This document shows positions 2,679 to 33,124 of a stretch of 34,440 nucleotides of DNA, piece after piece (the stretch's first letter is position 1; the number at the start of each line of letters is the position of its first letter). Made by a program: the position numbers and the translations under genes. The notes below the pieces were generated by a model. That model did not search any database and had not been told where the DNA came from. It saw only the letters and a program-made list of their open reading frames with translations. The stretch spans positions 1 to 34,440 of the forward strand of contig JAGWZH010000023.1 in the NCBI GenBank assembly GCA_018971945.1. Reading direction: 5' to 3'. This DNA is from Alphaproteobacteria bacterium. GTDB taxonomy: Bacteria; Pseudomonadota; Alphaproteobacteria; Caulobacterales; Aquidulcibacteraceae.

Positions 2679-3818
2679 TCACCAGCGCAAGCGCCGCCGG
2701 AGCCTGTAGCGCAGCCAGATGGCGAGACCATTCATCAAAAGAGTGATGATCAACAACACAAGCCCCGCCGCCGCGGCCAGAGCCCGGAACTCCTCCTGCG
2801 GCCTGCTTGTCCAGTTGAACATCTGGATCGGTATGGCGGTGAAGCTTTCTCGCAGCCAGGAGTGGGGCGACCAAGTCGCTGCGGCCTCCGCAAGGCTCGC
2901 GGGCGCCTCCACGAGCGTCCCGTGCGGCAGGACTGCGGTCTGCGCCTCGCTGATCAAGACTTCAGATCCATCGGCTGCGATCACGGTGGACCCTGCGGGC
3001 AGTTCGACCTCCTCAACCGAAGACGGATCGAGCGCGGCCCCGTTCTGGTCCACCGCGCCGACATAGTGCGCCAGAGGCTCCCCGGGAGCGGCGATCGGAA
3101 GGAACGCGACGAACGCCAAGCCCCCGATCACAATCAATGGAGCGGTCTCCCCGATCGCGCGGGACAATCCGATGATCACGCCGGTGACCACGCCTGGCAG
3201 CGCGTTTGGCAGCACATGGTCCTGGGTTGTCCGCCATTTCGTGGCCCCAAGAGCCAGGGCCGCCTGCCGCAACTCCTGCGGCACCGCGCGCACAGCCTCA
3301 CGCGTCGCCACGATCACGATCGGCAGGATCAGCAAAGCGAGCGTCAGTCCGCCTGTGAGGATTGTTTGGCCAAGGTCCATCGCCTGCACGAACAATCCGA
3401 GGGCCAAGAGCCCGAATATGATGGAGGGTACCGCCGCAAGATTGTTCACCGCGATCTCGATGAGGCTGGTGAACGGGTTTTTGGGCGCGTACTCTTCCAG
3501 ATAAAGACCGGCCGCCACCCCCAACGGAATGGCGAAGGCCGCAGTGGTCAGGATCAGGAAGATCGACCCCACCCAGGCCGACAAGATCCCCGCCCGCTGC
3601 GGCTGCGAAGAGGGGAAACTGAGAAAGAACTCGGGCGCGATCAGGTGCGCGCCGGCGTCGACAAGGTCCCAAACGAGAGCGATGAGCGTGAGAAGCCCAA
3701 TCACAGTGGCGAGCAAACCAAGGACGACGAACACCACCTCCGCCCGGCGTCGGGATCTCACCTGCGGAACCATCGCGGCGATCGAAGGCCGAGCCGCGTC
3801 GATCTCGACAGCGTTCAT
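2679..3818 (-). CDS. pstA: Phosphate ABC transporter permease PstA
   Basis: Inner-membrane permease that pairs with PstC in the high-affinity PstSCAB phosphate importer. The cytoplasmic coupling (EAA) loop is clear (REAVRAVPQELRQAALALGA, about residues 173-192), as are the family motif RAIGETAPL and the C-terminal PIQMFNWTSRPQEEF. At 379 residues it is longer than E. coli PstA (296). The extra length is partly an insert of about 80 residues (roughly 243-324) before the last family motif, in a predicted periplasmic position, Ala/Glu/Ser-rich and without a recognised domain. The ATG at 3818 overlaps the pstC stop by one base (TGATG), so translation is probably coupled. The IS begins 9 bases after its stop, where pstB would normally follow. 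Confidence 0.93.
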   Translation of the reverse strand: MNAVEIDAARPSIAAMVPQVRSRRRAEVVFVVLGLLATVIGLLTLIALVWDLVDAGAHLIAPEFFLSFPSSQPQRAGILSAWVGSIFLILTTAAFAIPLGVAAGLYLEEYAPKNPFTSLIEIAVNNLAAVPSIIFGLLALGLFVQAMDLGQTILTGGLTLALLILPIVIVATREAVRAVPQELRQAALALGATKWRTTQDHVLPNALPGVVTGVIIGLSRAIGETAPLIVIGGLAFVAFLPIAAPGEPLAHYVGAVDQNGAALDPSSVEEVELPAGSTVIAADGSEVLISEAQTAVLPHGTLVEAPASLAEAAATWSPHSWLRESFTAIPIQMFNWTSRPQEEFRALAAAAGLVLLIITLLMNGLAIWLRYRLRRRLRW

Positions 3819-4723
3819 CAATAGGCCTCCCGCAGCCGCCGCTGCAGCCAGACGGCGAAGAAGTTGAAAATGAGGGTCAGGATCAGAAGCGCGACGCCCG
3901 CGGCGAAAATGCTCTGATAGGGCAGCGTGCCCACGGCCAGATCTCCTTTGGCGACTTGGGCGATGAACGCCGTCACCGTCGCGCCCTGTTCCAGCGGCGA
4001 GAACACCATGCGCACCTCAGTCCCGGCGGCGATCGCCACGATCATGGTCTCTCCCACGGCCCGGGCCATACCGAGAATGATCGCCCCGATCACCCCCGAG
4101 ATCGCGGCCGGCAGCACCACCCGCAGCGCCGTTTCAAGTTTGGTGGCTCCCAGGGCGTAGGACCCGTCTCTGAGCGCCTGCGGCACCGCCCGGAGCGCGT
4201 CCTCCGAGAGCGAGGCGATATAGGGGATGATCATCAGCCCCATGACGACGCCGGCCGACAGGATGTTGAAACCAGGCAAGCCGGGAATGAGAACCTGCAG
4301 GAGCGGCGTGACAAACAGCAGGGCGAAATAGCCATAGACCACCGTGGGGACGCCGGCGAGAAGCTCCAGAATGGGCTTCACGATCTCCCGAACGCGATCT
4401 CCGGCGAACTCGCTCAAGAAGATCGCGACCACGACGCCGAGCGGGACCGCCACCGACAAGGCCACGAGCGTGACCATGAATGTGCCGGTCAAAAGCGGCG
4501 CGATCCCGTAATGCGGATCAGCGAAGGTGGGCGTCCAACGAGTTTCGGAGACGAACTCCAGGAGCGACACTTCGGCGAAGAACGATGCGGATTCCGACAC
4601 GAGCACCCACACGATGCCAGCGACGATCAGAACCGCCAGCACCGCGGCGAGCCGCAGCCCTTCCTCGATGAGGCGCTCCCCCCACCGCACCCGCTTGACA
4701 GTGAAATCTCGATTGAGCGCCAT
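3818..4723 (-). CDS. pstC: Phosphate ABC transporter permease PstC
   Basis: A 301-residue inner-membrane permease of the PstSCAB importer. Visible features are the N-terminal membrane segment (25-42), VPLGVVVAIFLSEFAG (93-108), ELLAGVPTVVYGYFALLF (120-137), the EAA coupling loop ALRAVPQALRDGSYALGATK (176-195) and MARAVGETM (219-227). A GGAGG ribosome-binding site precedes the ATG. It lies 25 bases after pstS and overlaps pstA by one base, so the three genes are one operon. Length is normal for the family. Confidence 0.94.
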   Translation of the reverse strand: MALNRDFTVKRVRWGERLIEEGLRLAAVLAVLIVAGIVWVLVSESASFFAEVSLLEFVSETRWTPTFADPHYGIAPLLTGTFMVTLVALSVAVPLGVVVAIFLSEFAGDRVREIVKPILELLAGVPTVVYGYFALLFVTPLLQVLIPGLPGFNILSAGVVMGLMIIPYIASLSEDALRAVPQALRDGSYALGATKLETALRVVLPAAISGVIGAIILGMARAVGETMIVAIAAGTEVRMVFSPLEQGATVTAFIAQVAKGDLAVGTLPYQSIFAAGVALLILTLIFNFFAVWLQRRLREAY

Positions 4724-4748: not shown

Positions 4749-5804
4749 TTAAGGCCTGACCGGAGCCTCCGCCGTTGGCGTTGCCGCCGCCTGGTCGACC
4801 TCTGCGACCTGCGCGGTCAAGAGTGGTCTTTGCTTCAGTTCTTCGATCGTGACACCGACCGCCCCTTCCCCATTGAAGGCGGTGCCCAGCGTGCGGTTGC
4901 GGATCCGGTCGGCATAGACGGCGTAGCTCGCGTCGGGCAGCGGCACATAGCCCACCGCATTGGCTTCCTGCCGCACCTGCGAGAGATAGAAGAGCGCGAA
5001 CTGGCGCACAGCCGACCGATCCAGAGACCGCGCCGAGATATAGATGAACAGCGGCCGCGACAGCGGCCGATAGGTCCCGGCGCCAACATTGGCCAAGGTG
5101 GGCTCAACTGGCCCCTCTCCGTTGTCGATCGCCACCGCGGAAAGCTGGTCGCGATTGGCGAGATAATAGGCGACGCCGAAATAGCCGAGGCCTCCTCGGG
5201 AGGTCGACACGCCTTGCACAATCACGTTGTCGTCTTCGGTGGGGGTGAAATCGGCGCGGGAGGCGCCTTCCTCCCCGTTCACAGCGAGCGTGAAGAAGTC
5301 GAACGTCCCCGAAGCGGTTCCCGGGCCGAACAGCGACAAGGGCGCGTCTGGAAAACCAGGATCGATATCTCGCCAGTTCCGAACGGTGCGCTCCGCCGCC
5401 GGCGCCCACATTCGCCGCAATTGGTCAACGGTTAGCGAGGTGATGGGGTTGTTTTTATTCACCACCACCGTGATCCCGTCGAACACGATCGGCGCCTCGA
5501 CAAACCCTATGCCCGCCTCCGCGCAGGCCTCCATTTCGTCGCGCTCAATCGGCCTTGAGGCCCCGACAATGTCCACCTCGCCACGACAAAACTTGGCGAA
5601 ACCGCCTCCTGTGCCAGCTTCCCCGAGCGGGACCCGGATGCGTCGCCCGTAACGGGTCTGGAAGGCTTCCGCCACGCGCTCCGACACGGGAAAAACGGTT
5701 GAGGACCCGTCGACCCGCACCTGCTGGATCGGCGGCCGCTCCGCGCAACCCGCAGCGCTCAATCCGATGAGGCAGGAGAAGGCCCAAATCGCTGGGCGGA
5801 GCAT
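4749..5804 (-). CDS. pstS: Phosphate-binding lipoprotein PstS
   Basis: Substrate-binding protein of the phosphate importer, 351 residues from the chosen ATG at 5804. That start gives a lipoprotein signal peptide (MLRPAIWAFSCLIGLSAAGC) with lipobox LSAAGC; an upstream in-frame start at 5861 would put 19 extra residues in front of it. The ligand-binding motifs of the PstS family are visible: VDGSSTVFPVSERVAEAF, GEAGTGGGFAKFCRGEVDIVGASR and GPGTASGTFDFFT. It is first in the pstSCA operon and lies 87 bases downstream of a triple PHO box, so PhoB control in phosphate starvation is expected. Confidence 0.93.
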   Translation of the reverse strand: MLRPAIWAFSCLIGLSAAGCAERPPIQQVRVDGSSTVFPVSERVAEAFQTRYGRRIRVPLGEAGTGGGFAKFCRGEVDIVGASRPIERDEMEACAEAGIGFVEAPIVFDGITVVVNKNNPITSLTVDQLRRMWAPAAERTVRNWRDIDPGFPDAPLSLFGPGTASGTFDFFTLAVNGEEGASRADFTPTEDDNVIVQGVSTSRGGLGYFGVAYYLANRDQLSAVAIDNGEGPVEPTLANVGAGTYRPLSRPLFIYISARSLDRSAVRQFALFYLSQVRQEANAVGYVPLPDASYAVYADRIRNRTLGTAFNGEGAVGVTIEELKQRPLLTAQVAEVDQAAATPTAEAPVRP

Positions 5805-5890
5805 GGCCGTCTCCAAAAGCGCGGACATAGGCGTGGGCGAGCAGGCCGCGAACGCCCCCAAAGGCGGGTCCTAGGACGAAGCCGTGAACC

Positions 5891-5923: not shown

Positions 5924-6299
5924 AGTCGGCCCCGGGGCCAGTCCGAGGATTGAGGTCCAACGGTTTGGGCCCAAAAGTTTGGGCGTGCCGGAGGCGGAGC
6001 GGCCGCTACCATGTGAGAGAGCGCCGCGCTTTGCAGGCCTTGGGCAGGCCAGACCGCCATGGCGCCCCGGCGCGCGATGGGTGAAGGCTCCTCTGCTGCG
6101 GGACCTCCCCATCGCCCCAGGGACGCCGGCGCAGCCAATGGCTTCGAACAAGGCCCGTCGCGACGCCTGGGCGGGGGCGTGCCAATAGCGCTTGTGACGA
6201 ACCCTTTGCGTCATACTGGCCGCCCTTCGCGTTTACTCTTACGAAACCCTTGGCCGCCTTGAGCGGAAGCATCCGCGAAAAATGGCGCCTGATGGGTCA
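5924..6299. other. Intergenic region between pstS PHO box and the ODC leader
   Basis: No convincing gene. The open frames here lack ribosome-binding sites and recognisable protein patterns. A perfect 12-bp palindrome TTTGGGCCCAAA (5964-5975) is followed by a repeat of its half (GTTTGGGC, to 5984). A TGACG(N9)CGTCA inverted pair (6195-6199 and 6209-6213) precedes the leader RNA candidate and may be part of its promoter region. No firm -10/-35 could be assigned. Confidence 0.4.
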
Positions 6300-6633
6300 T
6301 TTTCTTCTTTACAGGGGGGCTCGTTGCCCCTAAGTGCGCCCTACCGGCGGACCTGGAAACAGAGTCTACTAACGCCCCCTCGGCCCAGGCCACACGGGGG
6401 ACCGACCATAGTGATCCCGATGGGAGGCGTTCGCCCCCTTTTTCGGAAGCTAGGGCACGGCCTCCCGGCGTAAGCTCCCAAGGGCGGACCTGACATGTCG
6501 GCGCGTCTTTCCATGTGAAAGGCGAAGCCGTCGCAGCTCCGACTAACGCCGGCCTGGGTTTGAACAATGCTGGGCAGCCCCTGAAAGGGCGGCGGACGTT
6601 CCCGCGCACAGCTACACTGAGGGGGAGAGCCGG
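6300..6633 (+). ncRNA. Candidate speF-type leader RNA of ornithine decarboxylase
   Basis: A gene-free, structured stretch directly before an ornithine decarboxylase. This is the position and size expected of the speF motif known upstream of ODC genes in alphaproteobacteria. Seen directly: an AGGGG/CCCCT hairpin (6313-6317 with 6327-6331); GGCGGACCTG twice (6346-6355, 6483-6492), each followed by ACTAACGCC (6368-6376, 6542-6550); and a strong hairpin with a T-run at 6422-6443 between the two copies. Only the location is known to match speF; I could not compare with the family consensus. The 5' end is a guess. Confidence 0.55.
6422..6443 (+). terminator. Terminator-like hairpin inside the ODC leader
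   Basis: GGGAGGC, loop GTTC, GCCCCC, then TTTTT (6439-6443). The stem is GC-rich with one A/C mismatch. Its place inside the leader, about 190 bases before the start codon, fits an attenuator rather than the end of an upstream gene, since pstS runs the other way. Confidence 0.5.
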
Positions 6634-7878
6634 ATGGATCACATCCTGCGCCTTGCATCGTCTGCGGAACACGCCTCCGCGGCCGACGCCGTTGCCGCTG
6701 TGCGGCCGGAAGGCCCGTTGGCGATTGCGCGCCCGCACCGGGTGCGGGCCGCCGCGGCATGGTTTCGCGCCAAGTTTGAGGGCGAGATTTTCTACGCCGT
6801 GAAGGCGAACCCGTCTGCTTGGGCTTTGGACGCCCTATGGGCCGCGGGGGTCCGCGGCTTTGACGTCGCCTCTGAAAACGAAGTCCGGCTTGTGGCCGAG
6901 CGGTTTGGATCTGAGGCCAAGCTCGCCTTCATGCACCCGGTGAAGTCTCGCCGCGCGATTCAGCGCGCCTATCACGACTTCGGCGTCCGCACCTTTGTGA
7001 CGGATACCGAAGAGGAGCTTGAGAAGATCCTGGTCGAAACCGGCGGCGCGAAGGACCTGACCCTGATCGTACGCCTGGCTGTGTCCAATGATGGGGCTTC
7101 CCTGCCGCTGTCGCAAAAGTTCGGCGCCACGGGCGAGGAGGCCGTGCGGCTGATGAACCGCGCCCGCCGCGCCACCGAAGACCGTATGGGCGTTTCTTTT
7201 CATGTGGGCAGCCAGTGCCTGCGGCCCATGAGCTATCGCGCCGCCATGCAGGACGCGGACCGCGCCATCATCCGCGCGGGAGTCGTGGTGGACATTGTGG
7301 ACGTCGGCGGCGGCTTCCCGGCGATTTATCCGGGCGCGCCGATCCCGCCAATGGAGCGCTATATGGACGAAATCCATCAAGCCTTCGAGCAGATGCGCGT
7401 GGCGCAGAACGCCGAGCTCTGGGCCGAGCCTGGCCGAGCCCTGGTCGCCGAGGCCGGCTCCATCGTCGCCCGCGTCGAGCTGCGCAAGGGCGGCGCTCTC
7501 TATCTGAACGATGGGTCTTACGGCAATTTGTTCGACGCCACCCATGTGCGGTGGCCCTATCCTGTCAAACATATCCGTGATGGCGCCGCCTCTCGCGCAA
7601 AGCTCGCACCGTTTTCGTTCTACGGCCCCACCTGCGACTCCATCGACGCCGCCGCCGGCCCATTTCTGTTGCCCGCCGATATCCGCGAAGGCGATCATAT
7701 CGAGATCGGGATGTTGGGGGCCTACGGCGTGGCGATGGCAAGTCGCTTCAACGGTTTTGGTGAGACCGAGCTGGCGGTGGCCTTGGACACGCCTTGGCCC
7801 ACCCTTTACAGCGAGGCGGAGACGCCGCTTGCCGCCCAAGCCAAAGCCAAGCGTGGGAAGGACAAATCCGCCTTGTGA
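6634..7878 (+). CDS. speF: Ornithine decarboxylase, PLP fold type III
   Basis: A 414-residue alanine-racemase-fold decarboxylase making putrescine from ornithine (possibly also cadaverine from lysine). The PLP lysine is Lys57 in FYAVKANP. Other family motifs in order are FDVASENEV, SFHVGSQC, the glycine loop VGGGFPAIYP, WAEPGRALVAEAG, YGPTCDSIDAA (active-site Cys-Asp) and GAYGVAMASRFNGF. The GAGGGGGAG ribosome-binding site sits 6 bases before the ATG. It is preceded by a long leader RNA candidate and followed by a DHS-like gene, making a small polyamine locus. The symbol follows alphaproteobacterial usage for ODC with this leader; the substrate is inferred from family. Confidence 0.88.
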   Translation: MDHILRLASSAEHASAADAVAAVRPEGPLAIARPHRVRAAAAWFRAKFEGEIFYAVKANPSAWALDALWAAGVRGFDVASENEVRLVAERFGSEAKLAFMHPVKSRRAIQRAYHDFGVRTFVTDTEEELEKILVETGGAKDLTLIVRLAVSNDGASLPLSQKFGATGEEAVRLMNRARRATEDRMGVSFHVGSQCLRPMSYRAAMQDADRAIIRAGVVVDIVDVGGGFPAIYPGAPIPPMERYMDEIHQAFEQMRVAQNAELWAEPGRALVAEAGSIVARVELRKGGALYLNDGSYGNLFDATHVRWPYPVKHIRDGAASRAKLAPFSFYGPTCDSIDAAAGPFLLPADIREGDHIEIGMLGAYGVAMASRFNGFGETELAVALDTPWPTLYSEAETPLAAQAKAKRGKDKSAL

Positions 7879-8060: not shown

Positions 8061-9146
8061 ATGGCCAAGGTGAAGGCGGCAGCAGCCAAGAAGGCCGCCG
8101 AAAAAAAACGCGACAACCGCAAGGCGGAACTGCTCTCAAGCCCCGTCGAACATATTGATGTCGCCAAGATCAACGGGTCTGAAATCATCAAAGCCATGGC
8201 CAAGATGAGCTTCACGAGCCGCGACACCGCACGTGCTGCGGAAATCCTCAACATGGCGCTTGCCGACAAGCAGTGTTCTGTATGGTTGACCATGGCCGGG
8301 TCGACGGGCGCCGGCGGCTGTCTGCATGTGTGGCGCGACATGGTCGAATACAACATGGTCGACGCCGTGGTCGCCACCGGCGCAGCGATCATCGACATGG
8401 ATTTTCTTGAAGCGCTTGGCTTTCGCCACTACCAGGCCAAGGAAATCCCCGACGATCGGGTGCTGCGGGATCTCTATATCGACCGGATCTATGACACCTA
8501 TATCGACGAAGAGGAGCTCCAGCACGTCGATCATACGATCTATGACATCTGCGCATTGCTTGAGCCGCGCCCCTATTCCTCTCGCGAATTCATTTGGGAA
8601 ATCGGGAAATGGCTTGCCTCCGGCAATGCGGTGAAGAAGGACAGCCTGATCCAGCGCGCCTATGAGAAAGGCGTACCGATCTTCGTTCCCGCATTCTCCG
8701 ACTGCTCTGCAGGCTTTGGCCTGGTGAAGCATCAGGTTGAGCGGCGCAAGGCGAAAAAGCCCTATGTGACCATCGACAGCGCCGCAGATTTCCGTGAACT
8801 GACGGAGATCAAGCTCGCCGCGGGCTCGACTGCTCTCTTCATGATCGGCGGCGGGGTGCCGAAAAACTTCGCGCAGGATACGGTCGTGTGCGCGGAGATC
8901 CTCGGTCATGATGATGTGGAGATGCACAAATACGCCGTTCAGGTCACTGTGGCCGACGTCCGCGACGGGGCCTGTTCTTCATCGACGCTGAAGGAGGCCT
9001 GCTCCTGGGGCAAAGTCGACGTGACCTATGAACAGATGGTCTTCGCCGAGGCCACAACCGTGGCGCCCATCATCGTCTCCGACGCCTATCACCAGGGCCA
9101 CTGGAAAAAACGCAAAGCCCGGAATTGGTCCAAGCTTTTCCAATAA
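8061..9146 (+). CDS. Deoxyhypusine-synthase-like protein
   Basis: A 361-residue member of the deoxyhypusine synthase (DHS) superfamily; bacteria have no eIF5A, so the role is polyamine-related rather than hypusine formation. Matches to DHS include YNMVDAVVATGA, FMIGGGVPKNF and EACSWGKVDV. The eukaryotic catalytic lysine (human Lys329 in VKVYADAS) aligns with methionine in QMVFAEAT, and the His in GGVVKHH aligns with Asn in GGVPKNF, so the chemistry must differ. The start is ATG 8061 with AAGGA 8 bases upstream; a GTG at 8022 is less likely. The N-terminus is Lys/Ala-rich. It sits 182 bases after ODC, suggesting use of putrescine (for example for homospermidine), which is inference. Confidence 0.85.
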   Translation: MAKVKAAAAKKAAEKKRDNRKAELLSSPVEHIDVAKINGSEIIKAMAKMSFTSRDTARAAEILNMALADKQCSVWLTMAGSTGAGGCLHVWRDMVEYNMVDAVVATGAAIIDMDFLEALGFRHYQAKEIPDDRVLRDLYIDRIYDTYIDEEELQHVDHTIYDICALLEPRPYSSREFIWEIGKWLASGNAVKKDSLIQRAYEKGVPIFVPAFSDCSAGFGLVKHQVERRKAKKPYVTIDSAADFRELTEIKLAAGSTALFMIGGGVPKNFAQDTVVCAEILGHDDVEMHKYAVQVTVADVRDGACSSSTLKEACSWGKVDVTYEQMVFAEATTVAPIIVSDAYHQGHWKKRKARNWSKLFQ

Positions 9147-33048: not shown

Positions 33049-33124
33049 GGGCCTGTAGCTCAGCTGGGAGAGCGCTACGTTCGCATCGTAGAGGTCAGCG
33101 GTTCGATCCCGCTCAGGTCCACCA
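33049..33124 (+). tRNA. tRNA-Ala (anticodon CGC)
   Basis: A 76-base cloverleaf. The acceptor GGGCCTG pairs with CAGGTCC, including the G3-U70 pair that marks alanine tRNAs. The anticodon stem CTACG/CGTAG encloses TTCGCAT, giving anticodon CGC (codon GCG). The T arm holds GGTTCGATCCC, and the 3' CCA is encoded. It has its own promoter. The genes that follow (toxin-antitoxin, excisionase-like) suggest its 3' end serves as an integration site. Confidence 0.97.

What the first reader, a model, noticed from the sequence alone, without database searches (positions are those of the whole stretch)
6300..6633. Leader RNA with duplicated motif and internal terminator upstream of ODC
GGCGGACCTG followed by ACTAACGCC occurs twice, separated by a GC hairpin with five T. 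The arrangement suggests two related RNA domains around an attenuator, probably a speF-type polyamine-responsive leader.
Basis: partly seen in the sequence, partly recalled or inferred. Interest (0 to 1): 0.6.

Follow-up and report, generated by a model that had tools for sequence, protein, structure and literature searches.

The report
New RNA leader controlling polyamine gene
Just ahead of a polyamine-making gene in Caulobacter and its relatives lies a highly conserved folded RNA, matched by no family of the RNA library searched here, that probably opens and closes the gene's start site; in the bacterium of this window the RNA has been doubled into one cross-paired structure.

Summary
The repeat is real. 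GGCGGACCTG...ACTAACGCC occurs twice (6346-6376 and 6483-6550) and recurs upstream of the ornithine-decarboxylase-type (ODC) gene in 53 of 60 listed genomes of the window's family (27 of the 53 trained the model). It is not speF: no Rfam family reaches its cut-off in the leader or in 16 related loci, 12 with the element. The copies are not two domains around an attenuator: helix P3, joining copy 1 to copy 2, changes in step (swap test p 1e-4), which makes one pseudo-symmetric four-way junction. The T-rich hairpin is not scored as a terminator. A single-copy form lies upstream of ODC in Caulobacteraceae, Caulobacter vibrioides included; outside Caulobacterales I found it only in one MAG labelled Bordetella. 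There the ODC codons CTG-GAC-CTG-GTC are invariant in 79 of 79 genes and are predicted to close the ribosome-binding site. Tandem leaders lack them (0 of 65 versus 87 of 87) and appear to use a C-rich arm inside the RNA. Best reading: an apparently undescribed translational switch RNA, probably a polyamine-pathway riboswitch. Ligand and sign are untested.

The parts
6308..6335 (+). putative promoter, TTTACA at 6308-6313 and a weak -10 (CTAAGT 6330-6335); the RNA would start close to P1
   Evidence: TTTACA at this place in 19 of 30 leaders; the consensus scan found 0 promoter-like sites, so inferred
6341..6562 (+). tandem leader RNA element (four-way junction plus tail)
   Evidence: covariance model R1 match, 139.1 bits, E 8.9e-37 (the window sequence is one of the 28 training sequences)
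6344..6349 (+). P1 5' strand CCGGCG (copy 1), pairs with 6547-6552
   Evidence: RNAalifold consensus picks the core of P1 (alignment columns 5-8 with 264-267); these four pairs never vary
6350..6366 (+). P2 hairpin GAC.CUG-GAAA-CAG.GUC
   Evidence: pairs nearly invariant
6368..6372 (+). junction ACUAA, copy 1
   Evidence: nearly invariant in 28 tandem leaders
6373..6377 (+). P3 5' strand CGCCC (copy 1), pairs with 6482-6486
   Evidence: 2 of 5 pairs with two-sided change; swap test p 1e-4 on 12 distinct pairs
6375..6391 (+). C-rich arm CCCCCUC-GGCCCAGGCC: second half complementary to the tail, first half to the Shine-Dalgarno region
   Evidence: CCCAGGCC and tail GGCCTGGG both present in 61 of 65, both absent in 4; SD pairing probability with CCCCCUC 0.66 in the window
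6396..6466 (+). P5 arm, variable apex (contains the T-rich hairpin 6422-6443)
   Evidence: 6 of 6 counted pairs show changes on both sides
6467..6476 (+). P6 GGC-GUAA-GCU mini-hairpin (GNRA-type loop)
   Evidence: two pairs never vary, the third departs only by unpaired cells
6482..6486 (+). P3 3' strand GGGCG (copy 2)
6487..6540 (+). P4 hairpin (copy 2); in this species enlarged and with a C-C mismatch
6542..6546 (+). junction ACUAA, copy 2
   Evidence: invariant in 28 tandem leaders
6547..6552 (+). P1 3' strand CGCCGG (copy 2)
6551..6558 (+). conserved tail GGCCUGGG
6620..6627 (+). Shine-Dalgarno region AGGGGGAG
   Evidence: position upstream of ATG 6634 (sequence); predicted unpaired 0.21
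6634..7878 (+). ODC-type PLP decarboxylase (controlled gene)
   Evidence: PF02784 E 1.5e-38; best solved relatives by sequence are lysine/ornithine decarboxylases
8061..9146 (+). deoxyhypusine-synthase-like polyamine gene, downstream in the same orientation
   Evidence: PF01916; NCBIfam NF002699, 560 bits over cut-off 500; a homologue follows in 53 of 60 related loci with at least 3.5 kb downstream

Best explanation
This is an apparently undescribed cis-regulatory leader RNA of the ODC polyamine gene in the order Caulobacterales. It most likely works as a metabolite-responsive translational switch. Its core is a junction built from CCGGCG/CGCCGG arms, a GGAC..GUCC hairpin and an unpaired (A)CUAA. 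A tail after the core (CUGGGU) and the Shine-Dalgarno region can pair with a C-rich segment and so close the start site. In Caulobacteraceae the core is single and the C-rich segment lies in the ODC codons. In the window's family the core is duplicated: the two copies cross-pair into one pseudo-twofold four-way junction, and the C-rich segment lies inside the RNA. I propose that binding of a polyamine-pathway metabolite shifts the balance between folds and shuts off ODC translation. Shown by comparison: conservation, helix P3 between the copies, ODC specificity in the loci examined, codon constraint. Predicted by folding only: SD closure. Inferred: P1 in the presence of the tail pairing (a pseudoknot), ligand, direction, and that a ligand rather than a protein is the trigger.
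For: Matched in 53 of 60 listed family genomes, 26 of them not in the training set. All 40 CM loci tested (30 of R1, 10 of R2) lie just upstream of ODC; 103 of 119 pattern matches in named genomes are ODC leaders. P3: 2 of 5 pairs with two-sided change, swap test 71 versus 43.7, p 1e-4 over 12 distinct pairs. Core-only folding of lineage g13 (L044, L050), which lacks arm and tail, gives the four-way junction as the minimum-energy fold. A model built from single forms finds both window copies (E 0.027 and 0.27 in 55,223 bases). Codons CTG-GAC-CTG-GTC invariant in 79 of 79. Native codons close the SD more than synonymous recodings (unpaired 0.052 vs 0.174; 68 of 71). Start codon (inferred TTG/GTG) in a small hairpin: 45 of 46 distinct windows with z below -1. 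Arm and tail appear or vanish together (61 both, 4 neither).
Against: No ligand was or could be tested. Of the 8 pairs with two-sided change, 6 are in P5, which both pairing models allow; only 2 (P3) bear on the cross-pairing, and both come from lineage g13. P1's core and the tail pairing never vary. In nested folding with downstream sequence P1 has probability 0.00 in all 50 leaders, the 4 g13 ones included; core only, enforcing P1 costs 7-8 kcal/mol in four leaders with arm and tail (1.3 in g13). RNAalifold on 78 single leaders with coding sequence pairs both P1 strands with coding sequence instead of with each other; core only it does choose P1. The second anti-start pairing shows no own-versus-swapped preference (-21.0 vs -20.6). 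Of 57 close ODC loci in 61 genomes, 45 have the element, 1 a degenerate form and 11 none. Three f2 single-type leaders (L047, L048, L052) lack the coding match. The A. tumefaciens speF RNA bound none of the polyamines tested (PMC1273637, passages).
Confidence: 0.46

Rival explanations
1. The leader is a structured translational control element recognised by a protein or by an sRNA, not by a small molecule; the conserved junction is a protein-binding site and the tail/SD closure is the output.
For: High sequence conservation with junction nucleotides fixed fits protein binding too; mostly one element per genome and one target gene.
Against: No candidate regulator was found, but none was sought; the complex architecture and polyamine operon context resemble riboswitches.
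Confidence: 0.26
2. An ON switch: a substrate-side metabolite (ornithine, arginine, agmatine) stabilises the junction and frees the start site.
For: In nested folding the closed state and P1 exclude each other, so a stabilised junction could open the SD.
Against: Feedback on a biosynthetic gene would favour an OFF switch; as a pseudoknot, junction and closure may coexist.
Confidence: 0.16
3. A speF (RF00518) leader.
For: Same class of downstream gene (COG0019-type decarboxylase) and same bacterial class.
Against: No RF00518 match in the window, its leader or 16 related loci, 12 with the element; four RF00518 loci do not match R1 or R2 at their element.
Confidence: 0.02
4. Static RNA structure: a constitutive 5' stabiliser and translation damper without regulation.
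For: P1 sits near the predicted 5' end; the start site is predicted largely closed (mean SD unpaired 0.17 in 50 tandem leaders, 0.05 in 71 single ones).
Against: Unpaired junction nucleotides as conserved as the stems are not expected of a mere damper.
Confidence: 0.1

Closest known systems
speF leader, Rfam RF00518 (Corbino et al. 2005, PMC1273637; passages on speF and Caulobacter seen)
   Same: alphaproteobacterial leader upstream of an ODC-type (COG0019) gene; ligand unknown
   Different: no covariance match in either direction; the passages mention Caulobacter for suhB and in a reference, not for speF
Spermidine riboswitch, SAM-I variant (PMC10853860; passages seen)
   Same: leader RNA tied to polyamine synthesis; the paper describes a four-stem junction for SAM-I aptamers
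   Different: no SAM-family Rfam match here; transcription termination there, translation proposed here
Glycine-type tandem riboswitches (recalled, no call)
   Same: two homologous copies of a motif in one leader
   Different: here the copies appear to cross-pair into one junction instead of forming two aptamers
Salmonella speF leader (PMC6386406, search listing only)
   Same: controls an ornithine decarboxylase from the mRNA leader
   Different: other organisms; not compared in sequence here

Membership tests
speF, Rfam RF00518 | covariance-model match at gathering score (37 bits) | tested here: not met
   Searches (E up to 10 on 6100-6700; E up to 5) on 16 related loci, 12 with the element
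speF, Rfam RF00518 | located upstream of an ODC-type decarboxylase | tested here: met
speF, Rfam RF00518 | reciprocal: RF00518 loci match this element's models | tested here: not met
   L032-L035 unmatched, except 9.6 bits (E 0.095, R1) in L035 at 2995-3072, far from its RF00518 element at 1501-1623
Spermidine riboswitch (SAM-I variant) | match to a SAM-I type covariance model | tested here: not met
   searches list no SAM family; the variant's own model was not tested separately
Riboswitch (general) | conserved structured leader with covariation, linked to a pathway gene | tested here: met
Riboswitch (general) | direct, selective ligand binding by the RNA | not testable with these tools
   needs in-line probing or calorimetry
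Riboswitch (general) | expression platform with alternative pairing of the ribosome-binding site | tested here: inconclusive
   codon constraint and folding support closure; switching itself not shown
Transcription attenuator | conserved intrinsic terminator in the leader | tested here: not met
   0 terminator-like sites in 6150-6700; T-rich hairpin not seen in aligned relatives; lineage g13 has a terminator-like hairpin elsewhere (by eye; not scanned)

The most novel reading that the evidence does not exclude
An unreported polyamine-pathway riboswitch class of Caulobacterales whose aptamer was duplicated and strand-swapped into a pseudo-symmetric four-way junction in one family, while its start-site-closing partner sits in the protein-coding codons of ODC in one lineage and inside the RNA in the other.
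Probability: 0.33. Interest if true: 0.82.

Novelty: new variant of a known kind. Interest (0 to 1): 0.63.

Why it matters
Caulobacter is a laboratory model, so a new switch RNA on its polyamine gene is directly testable. Validated polyamine riboswitches are rare (one spermidine class is described in PMC10853860; that it is the only one is my recollection). The two forms also suggest how a regulatory RNA can duplicate into a cross-paired unit, and how an expression platform can be written either in coding codons or in the leader.

Tried and rejected
speF membership: rejected by covariance models.

Two independent hairpin domains: less likely. Both models pair well (local 97.2%, cross-paired 94.9% of cells). 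The local model has no pair with two-sided change; the cross-paired one has 8, but 6 of these are in P5, which the local model as I wrote it left out, so the fair comparison is 2 against 0. The P3 swap test is the main ground.

Internal attenuator: the T-rich hairpin is not scored and not seen in aligned relatives.

Leader peptide: a short ATG-TCC-GAC-TAA in copy 2 was noticed by eye in many tandem leaders, not in all and not in single forms; no systematic search was made.

Second anti-start pairing CCGGCGYAAGCUCCC with GGGAGCUGCCGG: strong energies in most, but own pairs are no better than swapped ones, so not claimed (2 leaders without a recognised start and those without the segment dropped, 33 distinct pairs).

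False positives, included in the tallies and named: R1 hits G320 and G655 and R2 hits G351 and G289 have no ODC homologue in the stretch fetched. (codon conservation) was circular because it selected on the codons; one search replaced it and dropped 7 short loci of 86. Alignment A2 held a wrong L020 stretch by my coordinate error; A3 replaced it. One search kept only 7 sequences by a length filter; one search replaced it.

Literature: (10 of 10 searches) showed no report of this RNA; only open-licence papers are held and supplements could not be read.

Full report
Observation. GGCGGACCTG (6346, 6483) and ACTAACGCC (6368, 6542) recur in order upstream of the ODC-type gene 6634-7878. Shuffles of the window give 0.18 and 0.14 matches where 4 and 3 are seen. 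The hairpin with five T exists (6422-6443), but a scan of 6150-6700 scores 0 terminators and I did not see it in the aligned relatives.

Gene context. The gene is a PLP decarboxylase (PF02784) closest in sequence to solved lysine/ornithine decarboxylases. No NCBIfam cut-off is met, so the substrate is inferred. [quoted passage not shown] That compound is caldomycin, an agmatine-coupling product and homospermidine precursor in Thermus (PMC10981699, abstract and passages seen). A homologue follows ODC in 53 of 60 related loci with at least 3.5 kb downstream.

Not in Rfam. The window's only gathering-level match is a tRNA; the leader has one match at E 8.2 to a fly lncRNA. A permissive scan of 16 related loci (12 with the element, 1 degenerate, 3 with another leader) gave four low matches, all below gathering and none to speF. 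RF00518 matches 4 of 142 class genomes, 3 over its cut-off; those loci do not match my models at their element. In Corbino et al. (PMC1273637, passages seen) the A. tumefaciens speF RNA showed no measurable binding of ornithine, lysine, diaminopimelate, putrescine, cadaverine or spermidine.

Distribution. ODC homologues match in 61 of 61 relatives at E up to 0.001, some only weakly; 57 loci are close (E below 1e-90). Reading their leaders, 35 are tandem, 10 single, 1 degenerate and 11 without the element. A covariance model R1 of 28 tandem leaders matches 55 of 398 order genomes: 53 of 60 listed family members (27 of them in the training set), one single-copy leader (G046) and one false positive (G320). 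In 337 class genomes it matches the window's own genome and one false positive, G655. Of the 7 family members without a match, G032 lacks a close ODC, G018's ODC has no such leader and G002 has the single form; four were not examined.

Single form. Of these, 102 have ODC within 1.5 kb and L133, cut short, is by eye the same leader; the other 16 show no ODC downstream (two with under 700 bases to look at), nor do 2 viral matches. Named hits are Caulobacter (C. vibrioides, C. segnis), Brevundimonas, Phenylobacterium, Asticcacaulis, and, with the tandem form, Aquidulcibacter, Terricaulis and 'Hyphomonadaceae' MAGs. One real hit is in a MAG labelled Bordetella (L189); its leader reads like Brevundimonas, so I suspect a mislabelled bin. 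That the unnamed family f3 is Caulobacteraceae is inferred from equal contig lengths. Model R2 of 43 single leaders matches 110 of 398 order genomes: 92 of f3, 11 of the window's family, 6 of f2 and 1 of f5; the f5 hit and one f2 hit (G351) look false. In 337 class genomes it hits 2, both f3. All 40 CM loci tested (30 of R1, 10 of R2) lie just before ODC. R2 also finds both window copies, at E 0.027 and 0.27 in 55,223 bases, which supports homology of the copies with the single form.

Architecture. RNAalifold on the MAFFT alignment of tandem leaders pairs copy 1's 5' strand with copy 2's 3' strand (P1). Counting pairs, the four-way-junction model has 94.9% paired cells, 8 pairs with two-sided change and covariation score 0.115 (shuffles 0.063, 0 of 500 as high). 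Six of the 8 are in the arm P5, and two in P3, both from lineage g13. The model of two separate hairpins pairs 97.2% and has no two-sided change, but it contains no P5, so the fair count is 2 against 0. The key helix P3 (copy 1 3' strand with copy 2 5' strand) reads CGCCC/GGGCG, CGUACCC/GGGUGCG, CGCGCCC/GGGUGCG, CACCUAAA/UUUAGGUG or CACUUUGG/CCAAGGUG in different lineages. Over 12 distinct pairs from 65 leaders the sum of contiguous pairs is 71 against 43.7 by permutation, p 1e-4, the least that 10,000 permutations can give; relatedness is not corrected. P1's core never varies. Folded alone, the cores of two g13 leaders, which lack arm and tail, take the four-way junction as minimum-energy fold; in four leaders with arm and tail enforcing P1 costs 7-8 kcal/mol in a nested model. 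Single forms elsewhere and in one family member suggest that the tandem is derived, an inference without a tree.

Start-site closure, tandem form. The arm CCCCCUC-GGCCCAGGCC and the tail GGCCUGGG are both present in 61 of 65 tandem leaders and both absent in 4. Folding 50 distinct leaders, the tail pairs with the arm with mean probability 0.75 and the SD bases with CCCCCUC with 0.50 (0.66 in the window); the SD is unpaired 0.17 on average and P1 has probability 0.00 throughout. Nested folding cannot hold arm-tail pairing and P1 together; they could coexist only as a pseudoknot, which I could not compute.

Start-site closure, single form. In 79 Caulobacteraceae ODC genes the codons CTG-GAC-CTG-GTC (8-11 from the inferred start) are identical in all 79, the most constrained window of the gene; 7 of the 9 fully invariant codons among 201 conserved columns are in the first 22 columns (7 short loci of 86 dropped; relatedness not corrected). 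RNAalifold on 78 leaders with coding sequence pairs the tail with UGGACCUGG and the SD with CCCC, but also pairs both P1 strands with coding sequence; on the core alone it chooses P1. Against synonymous recodings of five codons, in a stretch without the core's 5' part, native sequences close the SD more (0.052 versus 0.174 unpaired, 68 of 71) and are more stable (-28.0 versus -23.8 kcal/mol). The inferred TTG or GTG start codon sits in a small hairpin of changing sequence (46 distinct windows, 45 with z below -1, plain shuffles). CTGGACCTGGTCC is in 87 of 87 pattern-selected single leaders of the named scan, and it or a close form of it in 0 of 65 tandem ones; elsewhere L020, L038 and 3 of 5 f2 (g178) loci have it, while three other f2 single-type loci (L047, L048, L052) do not. 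So the partner element seems to have moved, though lineage and function are confounded.

Mechanism. I take it as a translational switch: junction plus tail set whether the start site is closed. That the trigger is a polyamine-pathway metabolite, and that binding shuts translation, are inferences from gene context. Papers searched show no description; the C. crescentus transcript study looked for riboswitches by searching 5' UTRs in Rfam (PMC4117421, passages seen), which would miss a family that Rfam lacks.

Verdict. A real, conserved, apparently undescribed leader RNA, not speF, with an unusual duplicated architecture; regulation strongly suggested, ligand open.

Noticed in passing
L055, L056, L057 (leaders of ODC in family f5): A different conserved-looking leader precedes ODC in another family of the same order (by eye: CGACCCGAT..CGCCCCTCAGGGGGACGGC..GGTGGTCAGGGTGC); nothing at gathering in Rfam, no match to R1 or R2.
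   Followed up: partly
L044, L045, L050, L051: Lineage g13 lacks the C-rich arm and tail but has, by eye, a terminator-like hairpin ending in UUUU, and L044 and L045 a CCCCC/GGGGGG pairing at the SD, suggesting another output mechanism.
   Followed up: partly
L038 (family f4): Degenerate leader that keeps the P1 arms, a tail-like UUGGGUU, the SD and the coding CTGGACCTGGTCC but has lost the CUAA junction (R2 E 0.0062).
   Followed up: partly
L011 and L036 (genome G021): Two ODC paralogues in one genome each carry their own tandem leader.
   Followed up: no
L189: A MAG labelled Bordetella sp. carries a Brevundimonas-like single-form leader and ODC; probably a mislabelled or mixed bin.
   Followed up: no
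[quoted passage not shown]
   Followed up: partly
window 4749-5861, minus strand: Divergent PBP_like_2 solute-binding protein, with two transport-permease-like ORFs after it (2679-3821, 3818-4723; by eye phosphate-type, not searched).
   Followed up: no
window 33049-33121: tRNA gene, 63.4 bits.
   Followed up: no
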